Below, in pieces: positions 7,253 to 34,806 of a stretch of 64,000 nt of DNA. Numbering within the stretch: position 1 is the stretch's first letter; each line of letters starts with the position of its first letter. Origin of the DNA: Thermococcus indicus (GTDB lineage: Archaea > Methanobacteriota_B > Thermococci > Thermococcales > Thermococcaceae); NCBI RefSeq assembly GCF_006274605.1, contig NZ_CP040846.1, forward strand, positions 1,743,041 to 1,807,040, read 5' to 3'. Under the pieces are notes generated by a model. That model worked only from the letters and a program-made list of their open reading frames with translations. It was not told the DNA's origin and did no database searches. The translations under genes were made by a program, and so were the position numbers.

Positions 7253-7607
7253 CCGTGAACTCCCTCTCCACCCTAATTTTGGCGCCCTTAACGTACGCAA
7301 ACTTAACGACCTTGTAGCGTCCGGGAGGCAGATCGACGGGGATGCGCTGTTCGATGGTCTCGCCGGGAATTAAAACAACCCTCCGGTTCAAAAAAACTAT
7401 TCCCGGATCCAGCTTCTGCCAGAACCCGATGTACTCATACAGTTCAGCCTCATTGTCGATCTCAACCTTCACAGTGTTCGGGTTGGATATCCAGAGAACC
7501 AGTTCCCCCCTGCGCGGTTTAACCTCGATGTCCAGCTCAACCTCTAAGGGGGTTCCAACGGTTATGACGCCCACACTGTCATTACTGGGGATTTTTATTA
7601 TCTTCAT
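7245..7607 (-). CDS. Unrecognised small beta-rich protein, 120 residues
   Basis: The protein looks like a single beta-sandwich: alternating strands such as LEVELDIEV and ELVLWISNPN, ending in a KIRVEREFTV strand, similar in feel to CARDB-like domains but without a signal peptide. ATG 7607 is chosen because the frame upstream runs into tRNA-Leu. A TATA-like TGTATAAAAAT lies at about 7660-7671 on this strand, giving a leader of roughly 30 bases. No function can be assigned. Confidence 0.68.
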   Translation of the reverse strand: MKIIKIPSNDSVGVITVGTPLEVELDIEVKPRRGELVLWISNPNTVKVEIDNEAELYEYIGFWQKLDPGIVFLNRRVVLIPGETIEQRIPVDLPPGRYKVVKFAYVKGAKIRVEREFTVR

Positions 7608-7763
7608 CGCCACTAAATGATGCGTTTCTAACGATAAATGTTTCGGTACACACAAATTTTTATACACATTCTCGAGGGTTCTTTCCGCAGTACAACCTGC
7701 TGAAACAACCGTGTTAGCGCTTAAATTCCAGATGAAGATTCTCGGAACCAGAAAAGCGCCGTT

Positions 7764-7851
7764 TGGTGCGGGGGCGGGGATTTGAACCCCGGAACCCCTA
7801 CGGGACGGGACCCTCAATCCCGCGCCTTTGACCAGGCTTGGCAACCCCCGC
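7764..7851 (-). tRNA. tRNA-Leu(GAG), CCA encoded
   Basis: Read on the minus strand, a 7-bp acceptor stem (GCGGGGG/CCCCCGC) closes a cloverleaf with anticodon loop TTGAGGG (anticodon GAG), a long type II variable arm and a GGTTCAAATC T-loop region, as expected for tRNA-Leu. The mature body is 7767-7851 and CCA is encoded at 7764-7766. A TATA-like AAATTTATAAAGG lies about 35 bases upstream. Between TATA and tRNA is a nearly perfect hairpin (7866-7880, 6-bp stem) in the 5' leader. Confidence 0.95.
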
Positions 7852-7865
7852 GTCGCCAAATTATA

Positions 7866-7880
7866 AGGCTCGGGGAGCCT
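7866..7880. repeat. Inverted repeat between DUF835 gene and tRNA-Leu
   Basis: AGGCTC, a GGG loop and GAGCCT form a perfect 6-bp stem, with flanking TTATAA on both sides extending the symmetry. It lies downstream of the DUF835 stop codon and upstream of tRNA-Leu on the same strand. It could be the 3' end hairpin of the first transcript or a leader structure of the pre-tRNA. Confidence 0.5.
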
Positions 7881-7895
7881 TTATAAATTTTACGG

Positions 7896-8642
7896 TCACA
7901 TGGGGAGCTTTCTGAACTCCCTCTCAAGCAGGGTTACCATCTTTTCGCCCAGCGTCTCGGGGGAAGCGATTATAACCAGCCCGGCACCTTTGGTCAGCAG
8001 TATATCCTTCAGATGGAGAACAAAGCGCAGAACAGCATCCTCTCCGTTGTGCAGCACAAGATAATCCACACTGTCCAGTATAACAAAGGTGTCCCTGTCA
8101 ACGCTCGTTGTTACCGCATGGAGGAGCGGTGCGAGGGCAGTGGGAGACACGGCATTCGATCCCCCAACGTTGCTGAGCCAGATGTAGGAGGCACCACAGC
8201 GAAGGTACACCTCCGGGAAGCGAGTAACGCCGAGAATTTTCTTGCCCGAGAGGAGGCGTAAAACCGAGTCAACAGACATCGATCTTACGAGGTACGGCCC
8301 GGGCGAGATGGTGGACGTGCCGTCAAAAACAACATGGGGTTTGACGTGCGTCGCAATCGCCCGCCTCGTGGTGATGGAGCAAACCATAACAATCCCCATG
8401 CCGAGGGCAACCAGGACATCATCCAGAATCTTCAGAAACTCCGAGGATACCACATCATTAAGCACATTGACCCCGTAACCCAGCAGAAGTAGCAGGCTTC
8501 CAAGGGTAAGGGCACGAAAAACGCCCTCACCAAGGGTGTCTCTGATAACCCTACGTAAAGCCATGAAGGAGTAAATCGCCCCCATCACCGCAATAAATGC
8601 CACAACCTCTGCCGCAAGTTTCACATGTTCGTAAGTGATCAT
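7896..8642 (-). CDS. DUF835 domain membrane protein
   Basis: A 248-residue protein with three hydrophobic N-terminal segments (about residues 8-28, 42-62, 72-92) followed by a soluble domain with the DUF835 pattern: YLV...VLRLL, ILGVTRFPE, YIWLSNVGG and FVILDSVDYLVLHNG. DUF835 resembles a KaiC-like fold without a Walker A motif and occurs at the end of archaeal sensory proteins; here it is tethered to the membrane. A TATA-like GGATATAAACC lies at about 8666-8676 on this strand. The function is unknown. Confidence 0.8.
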   Translation of the reverse strand: MITYEHVKLAAEVVAFIAVMGAIYSFMALRRVIRDTLGEGVFRALTLGSLLLLLGYGVNVLNDVVSSEFLKILDDVLVALGMGIVMVCSITTRRAIATHVKPHVVFDGTSTISPGPYLVRSMSVDSVLRLLSGKKILGVTRFPEVYLRCGASYIWLSNVGGSNAVSPTALAPLLHAVTTSVDRDTFVILDSVDYLVLHNGEDAVLRFVLHLKDILLTKGAGLVIIASPETLGEKMVTLLEREFRKLPM

Positions 8643-29339: not shown

Positions 29340-29461
29340 CCCCCTTTAGCACTGTCCTTTACTCCCTTATCACTAATCGAGTTAGCTTTTTAACTGTTCT
29401 TAGGTAGAAACATAACGGGTAAATATGAAAGTCACGACATGTTTTTCGGCCGGTGAAGGAG

Positions 29462-30130
29462 ATGTCCATAATATTCACCCAACTCCACGAGGAAATTAAG
29501 TATACAGCAAAGCAGATTGGGCTCAACCTGATTTCCATCCCATGGCTCATGGCGGTTATCTACCTCTTCACCAGCTGGACTCCCCTTTCGAGCGCCGCCA
29601 TTGTCGGAACCTCCAGCTTCTCCATCGCCGTTATAGCCGCTCTATTCTTTGGAGGTTCTATAGTCCGGGAAAAGTTCCTTGGAATCCACGAGATGCTCCT
29701 CAGCCTTCCGCTCGACCCGGTCAGGCTCATGCTCACGAGAACCCTCGCGAGCTTCGTTATTGGAATAACCGGAATTGCACTGGGGAGTGCCGTGGGATGG
29801 TTCATCACACTCCACGTGAGCACTCCAATACCCCTAACAACTGTGCTCTTCGGGATTCTAATCTCGGCTCCAGCGCTCTTCAGCTTCACTTTTTTGGTGA
29901 TTTTAATAACGCTCCTCTTTCAGTCAAGGTACCTCGACATAGCGAAGTTCATCATTTTCTTCACGGCATATTTTGCACCCGCGTACATTCCCAAGTACTT
30001 CGGAGTTGGCCTCTCGTTGGAGACCGCACTGGTGTTATCGCTCCTGCTGTCTATAGGGGCACTCGCGGTCTCGTTTTCGATTATCCGTCCCTTAGGGGAG
30101 AAGCTTGCCGAGAGGATAGTGTTAGTGTGA
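29462..30130 (+). CDS. ABC-2 type permease subunit 1 of the RiPP locus
   Basis: About 222 residues with six predicted membrane helices after a short cytosolic N-terminus (HEEIKYTAKQIG). It is clearly paralogous to the permease at 33210: both share EVKYTAKELG-like starts, a central SPALFSFTFL/ISCIPLLFAF helix, a YFGVGL loop and an ERI(V/I)LV end. ATG 29462 lies 6 bases after GGTGA; a GTG at 29453 is in frame. With its partner and the ATPase at 33910 it likely forms a heteromeric exporter or immunity pump. GC content is ordinary, unlike the peptide and rSAM genes. Confidence 0.82.
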   Translation: MSIIFTQLHEEIKYTAKQIGLNLISIPWLMAVIYLFTSWTPLSSAAIVGTSSFSIAVIAALFFGGSIVREKFLGIHEMLLSLPLDPVRLMLTRTLASFVIGITGIALGSAVGWFITLHVSTPIPLTTVLFGILISAPALFSFTFLVILITLLFQSRYLDIAKFIIFFTAYFAPAYIPKYFGVGLSLETALVLSLLLSIGALAVSFSIIRPLGEKLAERIVLV

Positions 30131-30331: not shown

Positions 30332-30484
30332 GTGATCCCTGTGGGATGGCTGTGCTACGCGATATGTGGAACAATTTGTGTTGGGGGTTGTACAGCAGCT
30401 TGCGGTGTTACTTCAGGGGCAGCACTGGCCGTAGCTTCCCAAGGATTAATGGCAGGAGGAACTGCAGCAGCATTTGGGCGTTGA
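30332..30484 (+). CDS. Putative sactipeptide-type RiPP precursor, C-x3-C repeat
   Basis: A 50-residue peptide with cysteines at 8, 12, 16, 20 and 24, a strict every-fourth-residue register, followed by a hydrophobic tail rich in Gly, Ala, Ser and Thr with almost no charge. The GW at residues 5-6, the C-x3-C spacing and the tail recall the beta peptide of thuricin CD, a sactipeptide whose cysteine sulphurs are linked to alpha carbons. An in-frame TAG at 30323 prevents a longer N-terminus, so the leader is at most 4 residues (start GTG 30332), or 1 if GTG 30341 is used; the near absence of a leader is unusual. The radical-SAM gene starts 13 bases later. Too short for many gene finders. Confidence 0.75.
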   Translation: MIPVGWLCYAICGTICVGGCTAACGVTSGAALAVASQGLMAGGTAAAFGR

Positions 30485-30497
30485 AAGGTGAGAAGCA

Positions 30498-32009
30498 GTG
30501 TCTCAGTTCATTCGTTCTTTTACTTTTTTCCGAACGAATTCTGGTAACGAATATCTATTCGATGATATAACCGGAGTGGTACTTCAAATTCCGGCGGAGA
30601 TTAGCTCACGAATTAAACATATACTCTTCGATAGTACAACACCTGCTGAGGCCTTAATAAAGGTTTACAAAGAAGCACCTGAGGAAAATAATTATGCTAG
30701 AATTTACAAAATTTTAGAAACTCTGATCTCTAATTTTGGAGCATTTTACAGGCTTCCTATGAAGATCAGTACCTCTGAAATAGAAGAGGGTATTTTGCAG
30801 TATATGATCCTAAGAGACGGGCTTTATGAGCTACTTCTGGAAGTTACTGATAACTGCAATTTCAGATGTCGGTATTGCGTATTCGGGGGTAATTATAAAG
30901 ATTTCAGGACCCATGGATATTCGTTCATGACACTGGAAACTGCAATAAAAGCCATTGACCTGTACTTTGAGTACCTAACGGAGGGAGCGTTATTGAATCC
31001 AATGAGAGAGCCAACTATAGCTTTCTATGGAGGAGAACCTCTTCTTAACTTTAAACTTATTGAAAAGTGTGTTGAATATGTGAATCAGACTTATTCTGAT
31101 GAATTTGCCCCTCGATACACAATTACAACTAATGCTTCCTTGATAACTAAAAAAATAGCAGAATTCCTTGTCAAAAATGATTTTGATGTGTTTATAAGCT
31201 TGGATGGACCTCAAGAGGAACATAATCGGAATAGAGTCTTGGCTAACGGCAGAGGTACTTTTGACCTAGTGATAAGGGGCATATCTAACCTTAAGAATGC
31301 CCAGAGAAAACACGACGGCTCTAACAAGGAGTATTTCGCCCTAATCACATATGATCCAAAGTCAAATTTATATGATATCACGAAGTTTTTTGGTGAGGAA
31401 TCACCAATAAAGCCAATATTTGCAAATCCCGTACGTTCTATGGGTACTACGTATTATTTGCCATTTACTGAAGAAGACTACATGAATCACGAGAAGATGT
31501 TACGGGAACTCTTTAAGAAATTCCTCAATGATTCTCGGAACGGTCACAAGTCAGCCTTTTCTGAAATTTTATTTGGTGGTCCTGGATCTTTAATGTTCTA
31601 TCGGAACATGTTAAGCCGTAAGAATCCAACGGCAATATTCACCTCAACTTGTATTCCAGGGTTTAAATGGTATGTAACCACCGGTGGGAAGATTCAGGTA
31701 TGTGAAAGGGCACCCTATAGCACCATAATCAGAGACGTCAATAAAGGTCTGGATTTCTCTGCAATAAAAACACTAATTCAGAGGTACTTCAAGTTGATAG
31801 TGGATAAATGCAATTACTGTGGCCTAGCCCACAGTTGCGCAAGATGCTTTGCATACATGGATTCAGAGGACTGTACTCTCTTTAAACGCTGGGTGATTGA
31901 CGGATTAAAAACAGCATTTACAATATATGAAAATAATCCCGAGTATTTTGAAAAAAGATTGTCAGTGCTAAAAGAAAAAGGTGGAATCTATGCCGTGGAA
32001 ATTCTTTAA
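30498..32009 (+). CDS. Radical SAM/SPASM peptide maturase, canonical
   Basis: A 503-residue enzyme. The N-terminal 100 residues resemble a PqqD-like peptide-recognition domain (SGNEYLFDDITGVVLQIPAE). The radical SAM cluster motif CNFRCRYC is at residues 120-127, and AFYGGEPLL follows near 175-183. The C-terminal SPASM region has C-x12-G-x4-C (GGKIQVC) and then C-x2-C-x5-C-x2-C with a later Cys (CNYCGLAHSCARC). SPASM enzymes such as AlbA and TrnC/TrnD form thioether links in sactipeptides. GTG 30498 follows AGGTGAG. The gene is clearly AT-rich relative to its surroundings, hinting at transfer. Confidence 0.9.
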   Translation: MSQFIRSFTFFRTNSGNEYLFDDITGVVLQIPAEISSRIKHILFDSTTPAEALIKVYKEAPEENNYARIYKILETLISNFGAFYRLPMKISTSEIEEGILQYMILRDGLYELLLEVTDNCNFRCRYCVFGGNYKDFRTHGYSFMTLETAIKAIDLYFEYLTEGALLNPMREPTIAFYGGEPLLNFKLIEKCVEYVNQTYSDEFAPRYTITTNASLITKKIAEFLVKNDFDVFISLDGPQEEHNRNRVLANGRGTFDLVIRGISNLKNAQRKHDGSNKEYFALITYDPKSNLYDITKFFGEESPIKPIFANPVRSMGTTYYLPFTEEDYMNHEKMLRELFKKFLNDSRNGHKSAFSEILFGGPGSLMFYRNMLSRKNPTAIFTSTCIPGFKWYVTTGGKIQVCERAPYSTIIRDVNKGLDFSAIKTLIQRYFKLIVDKCNYCGLAHSCARCFAYMDSEDCTLFKRWVIDGLKTAFTIYENNPEYFEKRLSVLKEKGGIYAVEIL

Positions 32010-33213
32010 GCTATACCCCTGGGTATATTACTGTAAGGGAACAAATGGAGCAACACTCTACGACTGGTTGAACGGGAAAATACTGAGTCTAAACAATGAG
32101 CAGGCAAAAGTGCTGGAAAAACTAATAAATGGGGTCTTTGAGGAGGATATTCTCAAGCAGGATAATATACTGGCCAAGTTGAGGGACTTTGGGTTTGTTT
32201 CTTCGGATAATATTTACATTGACAATCTCACCTTAGGTTCAAAACTTCAAAAAGTGATGCAATTTATAAATACTTTCCATGTACAGAGACTTGATTTAGT
32301 ACTTAACACGCCATGCGACAGATATGAGTCATGTCCCATAAGAAATTCTATGGTTGTATCTCATGCATGTGAATCCTGCTTAGGATGTGCAAAAAAGGAT
32401 ATGCCAGACAGAAATATTAACCCTAAAAAACTGGCAGAGCTGTTAAATGTGTTTAGGCCTCAGGTGGTGACTCTAAGCGGGGGAGAACTGTTTAGTGATG
32501 TTCCTTTAGTCAATAATGTGTTATCTCTGCTTTTAGAGTCTAAATATCCCGATATAGCCGTTTTAATAATGCCTTTGCATTCCATTGTGAAATTCAGAAG
32601 TGAAGTTGCTAAACACACGAGTATGTTTTTAGAACGGGGCAAAAAGCTTGCACTGACTGTTGTACTTACCAAGCATGAGTTCGAAGGCATCCCGAAAATC
32701 TTAGGAATGATGAAAGAACTCAATATTACTCTGACATTTGTGGCGTATATGAATCTTGATAAACCCCCTGCAGAGATACCAGAATTGAACAGCTTACAAA
32801 AAACTGTCACAATAGTATCCGCTTTCTATTCTCTCAGCGGGCGGAACGTTCTTGAGAATCTTGAGAAATTTTTAAACATGCAATACGTGAATCCCTACAT
32901 AGTTAACTCTCCAGCAATTGAGAACTTAATAAATGCCATCGAGTATGGCTATGCCAGTTGTTTATATGGAAATCTCATGATAGACCTTCCTAATGGGATT
33001 ATAACTCCATGTAAAGGATATTGCCTCCTGAATTATATCCAGAAAGAATTAAACCGAAAAGCACTTCAGAAGGTTATGTTGTTATGGGAAGACCCATGCC
33101 GAGATTGTTCCCTAAAAGGAGCGTGCACTATATGCCGTTCGATAGTTGAATCCATTAATATCACTCCCCACTCATGTCCAATATGGGAAAAGCCTTGGAG
33201 GTTTAAGAAATGA
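31990..33213 (+). CDS. Radical SAM/SPASM-like protein with non-canonical cluster motif
   Basis: A 407-residue protein. The start resembles a PqqD-like domain (GATLYDWLNGKILSLNNEQA). Where the radical SAM CX3CX2C is expected, cysteines occur at 109 and 115 (CDRYESC) and at 127, 130 and 133 (CESCLGC, a CX2CX2C). A GGE motif (TLSGGELFSD) follows near 164. The C-terminal SPASM pattern is complete (C...G-x4-C, C-x2-C-x5-C-x2-C, later Cys). It may be a divergent maturase or a partner that lost SAM chemistry. ATG 31990 follows AAAGGTGG, overlaps the first maturase by 20 bases, and the stop overlaps the next start (ATGA), so the genes are translationally coupled. Confidence 0.85.
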   Translation: MPWKFFKLYPWVYYCKGTNGATLYDWLNGKILSLNNEQAKVLEKLINGVFEEDILKQDNILAKLRDFGFVSSDNIYIDNLTLGSKLQKVMQFINTFHVQRLDLVLNTPCDRYESCPIRNSMVVSHACESCLGCAKKDMPDRNINPKKLAELLNVFRPQVVTLSGGELFSDVPLVNNVLSLLLESKYPDIAVLIMPLHSIVKFRSEVAKHTSMFLERGKKLALTVVLTKHEFEGIPKILGMMKELNITLTFVAYMNLDKPPAEIPELNSLQKTVTIVSAFYSLSGRNVLENLEKFLNMQYVNPYIVNSPAIENLINAIEYGYASCLYGNLMIDLPNGIITPCKGYCLLNYIQKELNRKALQKVMLLWEDPCRDCSLKGACTICRSIVESINITPHSCPIWEKPWRFKK

Positions 33214-33890
33214 CTCACAAGATGATCAAATCTCCTTTAATGGAGGAAGTTAAATACACTGCGAAAGAGCTGGGAACCCTTGGAGTGAGCGCCCTGGCGA
33301 ACGTAGCTATAATCTACACGGTAATCCCCATTCTCAGCCCCGGTCTTGAGAATGGACTAACCCTTGGAATGCTGGCAGTAGCGTTCTCCCTCATGGTCAG
33401 TATCATCGTAACCTCCCCCGTATCATGGGCCAAGACGATAGGAACACTGGAGATGCAGCTCTCAGGCCCCTTCTCTCCTCGGGGAATCCTTCTCCTAAAG
33501 GCTGTGGTCGCTTCCATCTATGGACTCCTCCCTATCGGGGGAGGCCTTGCAATTGGAAGCATAGTCAGAACGTTTATTGGAGCGAAAACCACCCCGTCCT
33601 TGCTATTCTTTACCATGATCTCCTGCATTCCCCTGCTCTTTGCCTTCAGTCTGCTGTTCACACTGTTGTGTGCCCTCGTGGAGCAGAAACACCTCGATTT
33701 TCTGAAAGTTGCTGTGTTCATGGTAGCCTACCTCCTTCCCCTGTACCTTGCGAGATACTTTGGAGTCGGCCTTTATCTCTCAAGCGCCCTGTTCATCGCT
33801 CTTCTCATCCTGTCGCTTGTGCTGGCAGTTTACTTTGCAGTACTCAAGTACTATGGAGAAAGGCTCTCGGAAGCCATAATCTTGGTGTAA
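33210..33890 (+). CDS. ABC-2 type permease subunit 2 of the RiPP locus
   Basis: A 226-residue protein with six predicted membrane helices, paralogous to the permease at 29462. The ATG overlaps the stop of the second maturase by 4 bases, binding it to the peptide operon. Base composition returns to that of normal Thermococcus genes from here on. It probably pairs with permease 1 and the downstream ATPase to export the modified peptide or protect the producer. Confidence 0.84.
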   Translation: MTHKMIKSPLMEEVKYTAKELGTLGVSALANVAIIYTVIPILSPGLENGLTLGMLAVAFSLMVSIIVTSPVSWAKTIGTLEMQLSGPFSPRGILLLKAVVASIYGLLPIGGGLAIGSIVRTFIGAKTTPSLLFFTMISCIPLLFAFSLLFTLLCALVEQKHLDFLKVAVFMVAYLLPLYLARYFGVGLYLSSALFIALLILSLVLAVYFAVLKYYGERLSEAIILV

Positions 33891-33909: not shown

Positions 33910-34806
33910 ATGATAGTGCTCGAAAACGTGAGGAAGACCATTAGAGGAAAGGAAGTCCTCCGCGGGATAAGCCTGACTGTGAAGCCCGGCGAAATCCACG
34001 CCTACCTCGGCCACAATGGAGCCGGCAAAACAACAACCTTCCGCCTGATTCTCGGCATCCTCGTCCCGGACTCCGGCAGGGTAGAAGTCCTCGGCGTCAA
34101 TCCCCTCAAGAACCCGGAGGTGAGGGCCAAAATCGGCTACCTGCCCGAGTACGACCTCCTCTACCCAAACCTCACGGTTCTTAACAACCTCAGGCGCTAC
34201 GCCCTGCTGAAGGGAGTTTACGATGAGAAGGAGCTTAAGGACCTCATTGAGTTCTTCGAGCTTGAAGGGTACGCTAAAAAGAAGGTCTCAGCCCTCTCAA
34301 GCGGGACCCGGAGGAGGGTTGCGATGGCGAGGGCCTTCCTTGGGAGTCCAGAGGTTCTAATCCTCGACGAGCCCACGAGGGGCCTCGACCCCGAATGGAG
34401 GCTTAAATTCAAGCGGTTTTTGGGGGAATACGCGCGGGAAAACAACGCCTCAGTTATTTTCTCGACGCACATACTGAGCGATGTCGATGAGGTGTGCGAA
34501 AACGTCACTGTAATCATGGAGGGCAGAATACTCTTCTCGGGAAGCCTTGGGGAGTTCAAAGAACTCGCCCCAAGCGGCGAGACTGTCCTCGTGAAGGTGG
34601 CAGAAGTGAAGGGGGCCCTTCGGGTGCTTAGGGAAAACGGTTACTCACCCGAGCTGAGGGGTGAGTACATAGTGCTGGAGGACGCCGAGTCTCCGGAAAT
34701 CAACGCCCTCCTCGTGGGGGCCGGCCTGAAGGTTGAGGAGGTTAAGAGAAAGGAACCGAGCCTTGAGGAGGTTTACACCATGCTCCACGGGAGGTTGGCA
34801 CAATGA
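33910..34806 (+). CDS. ABC transporter ATPase of the RiPP locus
   Basis: A 298-residue ATP-binding subunit: Walker A GHNGAGKTT (about residues 35-43), Q-loop region YLPEYDLLYPNL, signature ALSSGTRRRV (a variant of LSGGQ), Walker B VLILDEPTRGLDP and switch FSTHILSD. The extra C-terminal 80 residues match ABC-2 drug/peptide exporter ATPases (CcmA/NatA type). The ribosome site GAGGTGATTCC lies just before the ATG, 19 bases after permease 2. It would energise the two permeases. Confidence 0.93.
   Translation: MIVLENVRKTIRGKEVLRGISLTVKPGEIHAYLGHNGAGKTTTFRLILGILVPDSGRVEVLGVNPLKNPEVRAKIGYLPEYDLLYPNLTVLNNLRRYALLKGVYDEKELKDLIEFFELEGYAKKKVSALSSGTRRRVAMARAFLGSPEVLILDEPTRGLDPEWRLKFKRFLGEYARENNASVIFSTHILSDVDEVCENVTVIMEGRILFSGSLGEFKELAPSGETVLVKVAEVKGALRVLRENGYSPELRGEYIVLEDAESPEINALLVGAGLKVEEVKRKEPSLEEVYTMLHGRLAQ

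What the first reader, a model, noticed from the sequence alone, without database searches (positions are those of the whole stretch)
31990..33213. Second SPASM protein lacks the CX3CX2C radical SAM motif
The C-terminal SPASM cysteine pattern and a GGE motif are intact, but the cluster region has CX5C followed 12 residues later by CX2CX2C. It may bind its SAM cluster through an alternative motif, or be a non-catalytic partner that presents the peptide to the first maturase.
Basis: partly seen in the sequence, partly recalled or inferred. Interest (0 to 1): 0.75.

Follow-up and report, generated by a model that had tools for sequence, protein, structure and literature searches.

The report
Degenerate partner of archaeal peptide maturase
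In a heat-loving archaeon, a small cysteine-rich peptide is encoded next to two related iron-sulfur proteins, one a normal radical enzyme and the other with a broken-looking copy of the usual enzyme signature; the second is probably a helper that holds the peptide for the first, a division of labour so far shown only in bacteria.

Summary
The protein at 31990-33213 has no CX3CX2C. It has C109-X5-C115-X11-C127-X2-C130-X2-C133, a GGE and a full seven-cysteine SPASM domain. All 12 of these cysteines are shared with the two other intact homologues among 94 genomes of its family, so it is not a sequence error. The gene is under purifying selection and overlaps the canonical maturase gene by 20 bases. 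A 47-residue precursor with five cysteines at CX3 spacing lies just upstream.

A bacterial counterpart turned up. Ruminococcus albus 7 plasmid pRUMAL03 has the order huazacin-family peptide, radical SAM, homologue of this protein, ABC transporter. That homologue keeps CX3CX2C but has GGN instead of GGE. [quoted passage not shown]

Best reading: a TrnD-like partner subunit of a two-protein sactipeptide synthase whose dispensable SAM-cleaving site has degenerated. The first (an alternative cluster motif) is not excluded: the five cysteines are invariant and one subset fits QueE's CX14CX2C. No chemistry was tested. New variant of a known kind.

The parts
30341..30484 (+). precursor peptide, 47 aa from GTG 30341 (50 aa if GTG 30332 is used): CX3CX3CX3CX3C in the N-terminal half, Gly/Ala/Ser/Thr-rich C-terminal half; no leader to speak of
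   Evidence: conserved in G070 and G037 with the same five Cys; GGTGAT ribosome-binding-like sequence 4 nt before ATG/GTG in all three; in-frame stop just upstream in the window
30498..32009 (+). canonical radical SAM/SPASM maturase (rSAM1), 503 aa, C120X3CX2C127, GGE 178, Cx11Gx4C...Cx2Cx5Cx2C SPASM
   Evidence: PF04055 56.9 bits; best NCBIfam TIGR04068 CcpM 222 bits (below its 500-bit cut-off)
31990..33213 (+). the finding: partner protein (prot2), 407 aa, no CX3CX2C; overlaps rSAM1 by 20 bases
31990..32199 (+). N-terminal domain of prot2 (residues 1-70), predicted beta4-alpha3 like a RiPP recognition element
   Evidence: low-confidence model; best Foldseek match TbiB1 with leader peptide, E 0.07; shared with R. 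albus partner
32314..32388 (+). five-cysteine loop C109-X5-C115-X11-C127-X2-C130-X2-C133, after the first predicted barrel strand
32479..32487 (+). GGE (residues 164-166), directly after the second predicted barrel strand
32959..33177 (+). SPASM domain of prot2, seven invariant Cys (324, 341, 370, 373, 379, 382, 396)
33210..33890 (+). ABC-2-like membrane protein, 226 aa, start overlaps prot2 stop
   Evidence: about 29% identical to the permease next to prot2 in G070/G037
33910..34806 (+). ABC transporter ATPase of the operon
   Evidence: 73% identical in G070/G037
29453..30130 (+). second ABC-2-like membrane protein, upstream of the precursor
   Evidence: 57% identical to the permease next to prot2 in G070/G037

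Best explanation
prot2 is the second subunit of a two-protein sactipeptide synthase. rSAM1, with an intact SAM cluster, does the radical chemistry: thioether links from the five Cys of the 47-residue precursor to residues of its C-terminal half. prot2 plays the role of TrnD. It has a recognition-type N-terminal domain, a radical-SAM-like barrel and a complete SPASM domain. It pairs with rSAM1, helps hold and orient the nearly leaderless peptide, and keeps Fe-S clusters for structure or electron supply, but does not itself cleave SAM productively. Its CX3CX2C degenerated because in this pairing only the first enzyme's SAM chemistry is needed. Shown by sequence: operon order, conservation, motif loss, homology to the R. 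albus partner. Inferred: complex formation, peptide holding, thioether product, lack of SAM cleavage.
For: All three intact archaeal loci keep precursor, rSAM1, prot2, permease, ATPase in order, with rSAM1 and prot2 overlapping. The R. albus plasmid has the same order after two huazacin-family peptides, with ATPase before membrane protein; its partner is the only plasmid hit to prot2 among 72,556 records (E 0.01) and lies next to the best plasmid hit of rSAM1 (E 2e-64). Smith-Waterman z 13.3 and 18.0, 0 of 200 shuffles reach; BLASTP 2e-8 and 4e-10 for single pairs. prot2 lacks SxDG and HxxxR, which rSAM1 and the R. albus radical SAM keep; the R. albus partner lacks them too and has GGN. [quoted passage not shown] prot2 is under purifying selection, dN/dS 0.13-0.18. 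Best Foldseek matches of the whole model are SuiB and TigE (E 1.7e-5 to 7.3e-5).
Against: The five loop Cys are invariant; a pure scaffold need not keep them (the TIGR04150 and GwsS examples have no such cluster loop), so some metal site is likely retained. GGE is kept. TrnD has a three-Cys TWITCH while prot2 has a seven-Cys SPASM, so the match to TrnD is by role, not by anatomy; TrnD's sequence was not in hand. The structure models are poor (mean pLDDT 45.8 and 58.6). Only three intact homologues exist here, two nearly identical. With a precursor lacking a leader, peptide binding by the N-terminal domain has no obvious target. prot2 evolves faster than rSAM1 (dN 0.209 against 0.096).
Confidence: 0.6

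Rival explanations
1. prot2 is an active radical SAM enzyme whose [4Fe-4S] cluster is held by a rearranged motif. Either C109-X5-C115-X11-C127 (one-to-one with the R. albus CX3CX2C, the spacers lengthened), or C115-X14-C130-X2-C133, the same spacing as QueE. The two proteins would each make part of the crosslinks.
For: C115-X14-C130-X2-C133 is present in all three archaeal sequences and CX14CX2C is the cluster motif of QueE (PMC4389238, passage). MAFFT puts C109/C115/C127 on the R. albus CX3CX2C and C130/C133 on its CMGC. GGE kept. The HxsC profile reaches 8e-4 in the homologues over residues 126-193, laying the CX2CX2C region onto a radical SAM profile.
Against: SxDG and HxxxR are gone. No Pfam radical SAM match. 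TrnD shows that a partner in such a pair need not be active. The CX14CX2C fit could be chance among five close Cys.
Confidence: 0.22
2. prot2 carries a fully cysteine-ligated [4Fe-4S] cluster in the former SAM site (CX2CX2C plus C109 or C115-Pro116), turned into an electron carrier that feeds rSAM1.
For: Five invariant Cys in one loop, two SPASM clusters' worth of Cys beside it. The CX2CX2C plus remote Cys-Pro arrangement is recalled from ferredoxins (no call).
Against: No structural confidence in that loop (pLDDT about 30). Redox role is untested; could equally be a structural Zn or Fe-S site.
Confidence: 0.13
3. Sequencing or assembly error, or a decaying gene.
For: A homologue with normal CX3CX2C exists; decayed 3' remnants of prot2 exist in three related genomes.
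Against: Same motif in the homologues of G070 and G037; alternative frames closed; dN/dS 0.13-0.18.
Confidence: 0.02

Closest known systems
RUMAL_RS20320 (WP_013483961.1), Ruminococcus albus 7 plasmid pRUMAL03
   Same: Detectable homologue over the N-terminal domain and barrel start; same place in a precursor - radical SAM - partner - ABC transporter operon; five Cys in the same loop; SPASM with Cx2Cx5Cx2C
   Different: Keeps CX3CX2C plus CMGC; GGN instead of GGE; huazacin-family precursors with a leader-like start and two copies
TrnC/TrnD of thuricin CD (and ThzC/ThzD of thuricin Z)
   Same: Two radical SAM-type proteins for one sactipeptide system; rSAM1 has TrnC's Cx11Gx4C...Cx2Cx5Cx2C SPASM pattern; precursor with CX3-spaced Cys in the N-terminal half (for TrnC)
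   Different: TrnD has an intact CxxxCxxC, cleaves SAM in vitro and has a three-Cys TWITCH; prot2 has no CX3CX2C and a full SPASM. Five Cys and no leader in the archaeal precursor
TIGR04150 pseudo-rSAM protein (GG-Bacteroidales system)
   Same: Partner gene directly after a radical SAM peptide maturase and a small TIGR04149 precursor; N-terminal domain weakly similar to prot2 (z 3.9 and 5.5); family proposed to work with the radical SAM protein (PMC10352776, passages)
   Different: The one example read has no loop cysteines and no GGE; prot2 is not matched by the family model
GwsS, grasp-with-spasm SPASM protein (TIGR04193)
   Same: SPASM protein without CX3CX2C; similar to prot2 (z 7.1 and 5.7) and strongly to the R. 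albus partner (z 16.7)
   Different: Encoded beside an ATP-grasp enzyme, not a radical SAM enzyme; no loop cysteines
Dph1-Dph2
   Same: Heterodimer of two SAM-cluster proteins in which one subunit's cluster is described as regulatory (PMC11048331, passages)
   Different: Unrelated fold and chemistry (recalled); analogy only

Membership tests
canonical radical SAM enzyme | CX3CX2C motif | tested here: not met
   none in any of the three archaeal sequences
canonical radical SAM enzyme | match to Pfam PF04055 Radical_SAM | tested here: not met
   no PF04055 match in 3 of 3 members at E<=10; Fer4_12 only at 0.088 at best, in 2 of 3
canonical radical SAM enzyme | partial TIM barrel | tested here: inconclusive
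   alternating strands and helices; the 4 Foldseek matches at E<=0.001 are all RiPP radical SAM/SPASM enzymes, VIA Z up to 9.9 (viperin-like), but mean pLDDT is only 45.8 and dehydroquinases score similarly
canonical radical SAM enzyme | SAM cleavage to 5'-deoxyadenosine | not testable with these tools
   needs reconstituted protein
SPASM domain protein | Cx9-15Gx4C - CX2CX5CX2-3C - C | tested here: met
   Cx11Gx4C in the window (Gly is Glu in the two homologues), Cx2Cx5Cx2Cx13C in all three
TIGR04150 pseudo_rSAM_GG | score over 250 bits | tested here: not met
   no match in the genome; not listed for prot2
TIGR04347 pseudo_SAM_Halo | score over 525 bits | tested here: not met
   8 matches in the genome, none at prot2, none over the cut-off
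TIGR04193 GwsS | score over 175 bits and ATP-grasp neighbour | tested here: not met
   not listed for prot2; no ATP-grasp gene among the operon genes searched
TrnD-like partner | encoded directly with a TrnC-like seven-Cys maturase | tested here: met
TrnD-like partner | CxxxCxxC and three-Cys TWITCH as in TrnD | tested here: not met
   against the description
TrnD-like partner | sequence homology to TrnD; complex with its maturase | not tested
   TrnD sequence not found in the collections reached; complex formation needs experiment
sactipeptide precursor | Cys in the N-terminal half, candidate acceptors in the C-terminal half, next to a radical SAM/SPASM gene | tested here: met
sactipeptide precursor | sulfur-to-alpha-carbon thioethers in the product | not testable with these tools
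   needs mass spectrometry
huazacin family NF037972 | score over 35 bits | tested here: not met
   R. albus peptide 50.1 bits; the two archaeal peptides scanned are not listed for it
RiPP recognition element domain in prot2 | beta3-alpha3 winged helix fold | tested here: inconclusive
   beta4-alpha3 in a pLDDT 58.6 model; best Foldseek match TbiB1 E 0.07, none at E<=0.001

The most novel reading that the evidence does not exclude
An archaeal two-subunit sactipeptide synthase acts on an essentially leaderless five-cysteine peptide. Its partner subunit has traded the usual SAM cluster for a five-cysteine site of new spacing (CX5CX11CX2CX2C), either a non-canonical SAM cluster or a fully cysteine-ligated electron-transfer cluster.
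Probability: 0.3. Interest if true: 0.75.

Novelty: new variant of a known kind. Interest (0 to 1): 0.55.

Why it matters
Thuricin CD showed that a second radical SAM protein can be needed while its own SAM chemistry is not. This operon looks like nature's version of that mutant: the partner kept, its signature lost. With the R. albus relative (motif kept, GGE lost), TIGR04150 and GwsS (all lost) it gives a graded series from enzyme to partner that can be assayed. It also adds a candidate sactipeptide system in what looks like a hyperthermophilic archaeon with almost no leader peptide, which bears on how such enzymes recognise substrates. The proteins should be heat-stable and suited to structure work.

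Tried and rejected
Membership in TIGR04150, TIGR04347 and TIGR04193 was tested and not met. Descent of prot2 from rSAM1 by recent duplication: no detectable similarity beyond SPASM (hhalign probability 3.6 with 31 columns; 13 and 14 of 200 shuffles reach the score). HxsC (TIGR03977) as closest family: E 0.11 for the window protein, 8e-4 at best in the homologues, score 18 against a cut-off of 268, too weak to file.

Wider homologue searches gave nothing more: genome contigs, viral contigs, plasmids with the window protein at E<=0.1, phages (only weak partial hits). These scans start from short exact patterns or tblastn and would miss distant relatives. An enlarged profile (A3) matched 106 of 115 genomes; of the rows listed, all but the three intact prot2 genes and the known remnants cover only C-terminal positions (about 220 onward, mostly 307-385), i.e. 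SPASM parts of other proteins. Profile comparison and solved-structure searches with A1 gave no useful sequence match. A Cys-spacing DNA pattern with a GG fixed in one spacer did not find the known precursors, only three matches that I took as chance and did not follow.

Literature: Thermococcus with sactipeptide and archaea (2 papers), with RiPP and radical SAM (1 paper), with bacteriocin and lanthipeptide (2 papers), archaea with sactipeptide, radical SAM and precursor peptide (13 papers, of which passages of PMC8172795 and PMC12710340 were read): no description of this system seen. Grasp-with-spasm: 0 papers. Subscription journals are mostly not held.
Full report
What is there. The window holds, on the + strand, an ABC-2-like permease (29453-30130), a small Cys-rich peptide gene (30341-30484), a canonical radical SAM/SPASM gene (rSAM1, 30498-32009), the finding (prot2, 31990-33213), a second permease (33210-33890) and an ABC ATPase (33910-34806). 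rSAM1 and prot2 overlap by 20 bases; prot2 and the downstream permease overlap by 4. The pair rSAM1-prot2 has 38-39% GC in a 53% window with mostly 55-58% flanks, so it looks acquired.

The observation. prot2 has no CX3CX2C. It has C109-X5-C115-X11-C127-X2-C130-X2-C133, GGE at 164 and a seven-Cys SPASM. All twelve of these Cys and GGE are invariant in the homologues from G070 and G037 (66 and 65% identity). Other forward frames across the motif are closed, and dN/dS is 0.13 (G070 against G037) and 0.18 (window against G070). The motif is therefore a real, maintained feature. G070 and G037 prot2 are nearly identical to each other (12 synonymous and 6 non-synonymous differences), so the independent evidence is two lineages.

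Distribution. Of 94 genomes of the family, 9 match at E<=0.001. Three are full length (G000, G070, G037), three are decayed 3' ends of prot2 upstream of a permease (G021, G001, G022), and three are weak partial matches (G005, G004, G073) that I did not count as homologues. In 115 genomes of the phylum the same three plus three appear, with one weak extra (G078). In G001 the peptide gene runs, frame-shifted, straight into the prot2 remnant. In G021 and G022 other genes, including another ABC transporter, sit where rSAM1 and prot2 would be. The operon is thus rare and often lost or exchanged.

The precursor. In the window, G070 and G037 a GGTGAT sequence lies four bases before a GTG or ATG that opens a 47-residue peptide beginning Met-Gly-Trp-Leu-Cys, with five Cys at CX3 spacing followed by a Gly/Ala/Ser/Thr-rich half. 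The earliest start codon that the upstream stop allows in the window adds three residues. So there is practically no leader. The five-Cys pattern is also kept in the remnant of G021. NCBIfam matches are below any cut-off (Clo7bot 0.12, AC3_0185 0.44 and 0.59). Cys in the N-terminal half with acceptors further on is the layout of hairpin sactipeptides such as thuricin CD (described in PMC12093266); the thioethers themselves are not shown here.

A bacterial counterpart. tblastn of the G070 prot2 against 72,556 plasmids at E<=10 gave a single record, R. albus 7 pRUMAL03, E 0.01. The window prot2 gave none at E<=0.1. The same plasmid holds the best plasmid hit of rSAM1 (E 2e-64, 30% identity over 94%), and the two hits are adjacent genes with two huazacin-family peptides, an ATPase and a hypothetical protein alongside. 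The pairwise test is clear: Smith-Waterman z 13.3 (window) and 18.0 (G070), none of 200 shuffles reaching the score; for the first 95 residues z 11.9 and 10.6. The R. albus partner has CX3CX2C (119) then CMGC (137-140), GGN in place of GGE, and a SPASM with Cx2Cx5Cx2C. MAFFT pairs its five loop Cys one to one with the archaeal five, with lengthened spacers in prot2. BLASTP also pairs C109 with the first Cys and CLGC with CMGC but is less decided on the middle ones. The exact fate of the second and third Cys is therefore not settled. I examined the surroundings of 7 of 40 listed rSAM1 hits (H1-H7; 115 records matched in all): 2 of 7 have a partner SPASM-type gene directly downstream (R. albus; Parabacteroides with TIGR04150), 5 of 7 do not.

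SAM-site residues. rSAM1 and the R. albus radical SAM protein have SxDG and the HxxxR after it; prot2, the R. albus partner, the TIGR04150 example and the GwsS example lack them. That the Ser and Arg of this stretch contact the SAM carboxylate is recalled from the anaerobic sulfatase maturase structure, not from a call. GGE, which by recall contacts the SAM amino group, is kept in prot2 and lost in the R. albus partner. So each partner has lost part of the SAM site.

Structure. A model of prot2 from three sequences is poor (mean pLDDT 45.8). Its order of strands and helices fits N-domain, barrel, SPASM, with all five Cys in the loop after the first barrel strand and GGE right after the second. 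Foldseek's four matches at E<=0.001 are SuiB (three entries) and TigE. VIA-align gives Z up to 9.9 with viperin-like enzymes, but dehydroquinases reach 9.0, so the barrel is supported and its identity is less so. The N-domain alone (pLDDT 58.6) finds TbiB1 with its leader peptide first at E 0.07, with entry 5why (sactipeptide thioether-forming enzyme) and SuiB chains further down.

How it most likely works. [quoted passage not shown] Neither works well alone, and replacing two SAM-cluster Cys abolishes crosslinking in TrnC but not in TrnD (PMC12093266; I read parts 1-4 of 5 of the text). rSAM1 has TrnC's SPASM spacing. prot2 fits the TrnD position with the dispensable motif gone. I therefore favour a partner subunit that shapes the peptide-binding cleft and perhaps passes electrons, with rSAM1 as the only SAM-cleaving centre. 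Because the peptide has almost no leader, the N-terminal domain may serve the protein-protein contact more than leader binding (inference). Against this, five invariant loop Cys and a kept GGE suggest that a metal site remains. C115-X14-C130-X2-C133 has the spacing of QueE's CX14CX2C (PMC4389238, passage).

Known or new. Pseudo radical SAM partners are known as a kind: the family IPR026418 is described as co-occurring with radical SAM enzymes and a precursor, function unassigned (PMC10352776, passages); I take it to be TIGR04150 by recall. prot2 belongs to none of the family models tested. It is a new variant: an archaeal partner with a rearranged five-Cys loop and a full SPASM, serving a nearly leaderless five-Cys peptide. 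My literature searches found no description of it in the open papers held.

Noticed in passing
window 30341-30484: Precursor peptide with five Cys at CX3 spacing and practically no leader (first Cys is residue 5), conserved in G070 and G037; a possible leaderless sactipeptide.
   Followed up: partly
L012 1560-5930 (G021) and L014 5006-8000 (G022): At the same kind of locus other genomes carry a precursor remnant with a different, frame-broken radical SAM gene, or another ABC transporter, beside the last 40 or so codons of prot2: the maturation cassette seems to be swapped while the transporter stays.
   Followed up: partly
L013 6059-6321 (G001): Deletion remnant: the precursor without a start runs directly into the prot2 3' end, giving a 74-aa ORF with a SPASM Cys pattern.
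   Followed up: no
L002 and L003 (G070, G037): Between these two genomes prot2 differs at dS 0.048 but rSAM1 at dS 0.684, which suggests recent recombination with a breakpoint in or near rSAM1.
   Followed up: no
window 29453-30130 and 33210-33890: Two different ABC-2-like permeases flank the cassette in the window while the G070/G037 loci read here have one, which resembles the upstream one (57%) more than the downstream one (29%).
   Followed up: no
L078 (R. albus pRUMAL03) 7386-8627: 'Hypothetical protein' WP_013483961.1 is a radical SAM/SPASM-type partner with CX3CX2C but GGN, related to GwsS of grasp-with-spasm systems (TIGR04193 56 bits).
   Followed up: yes
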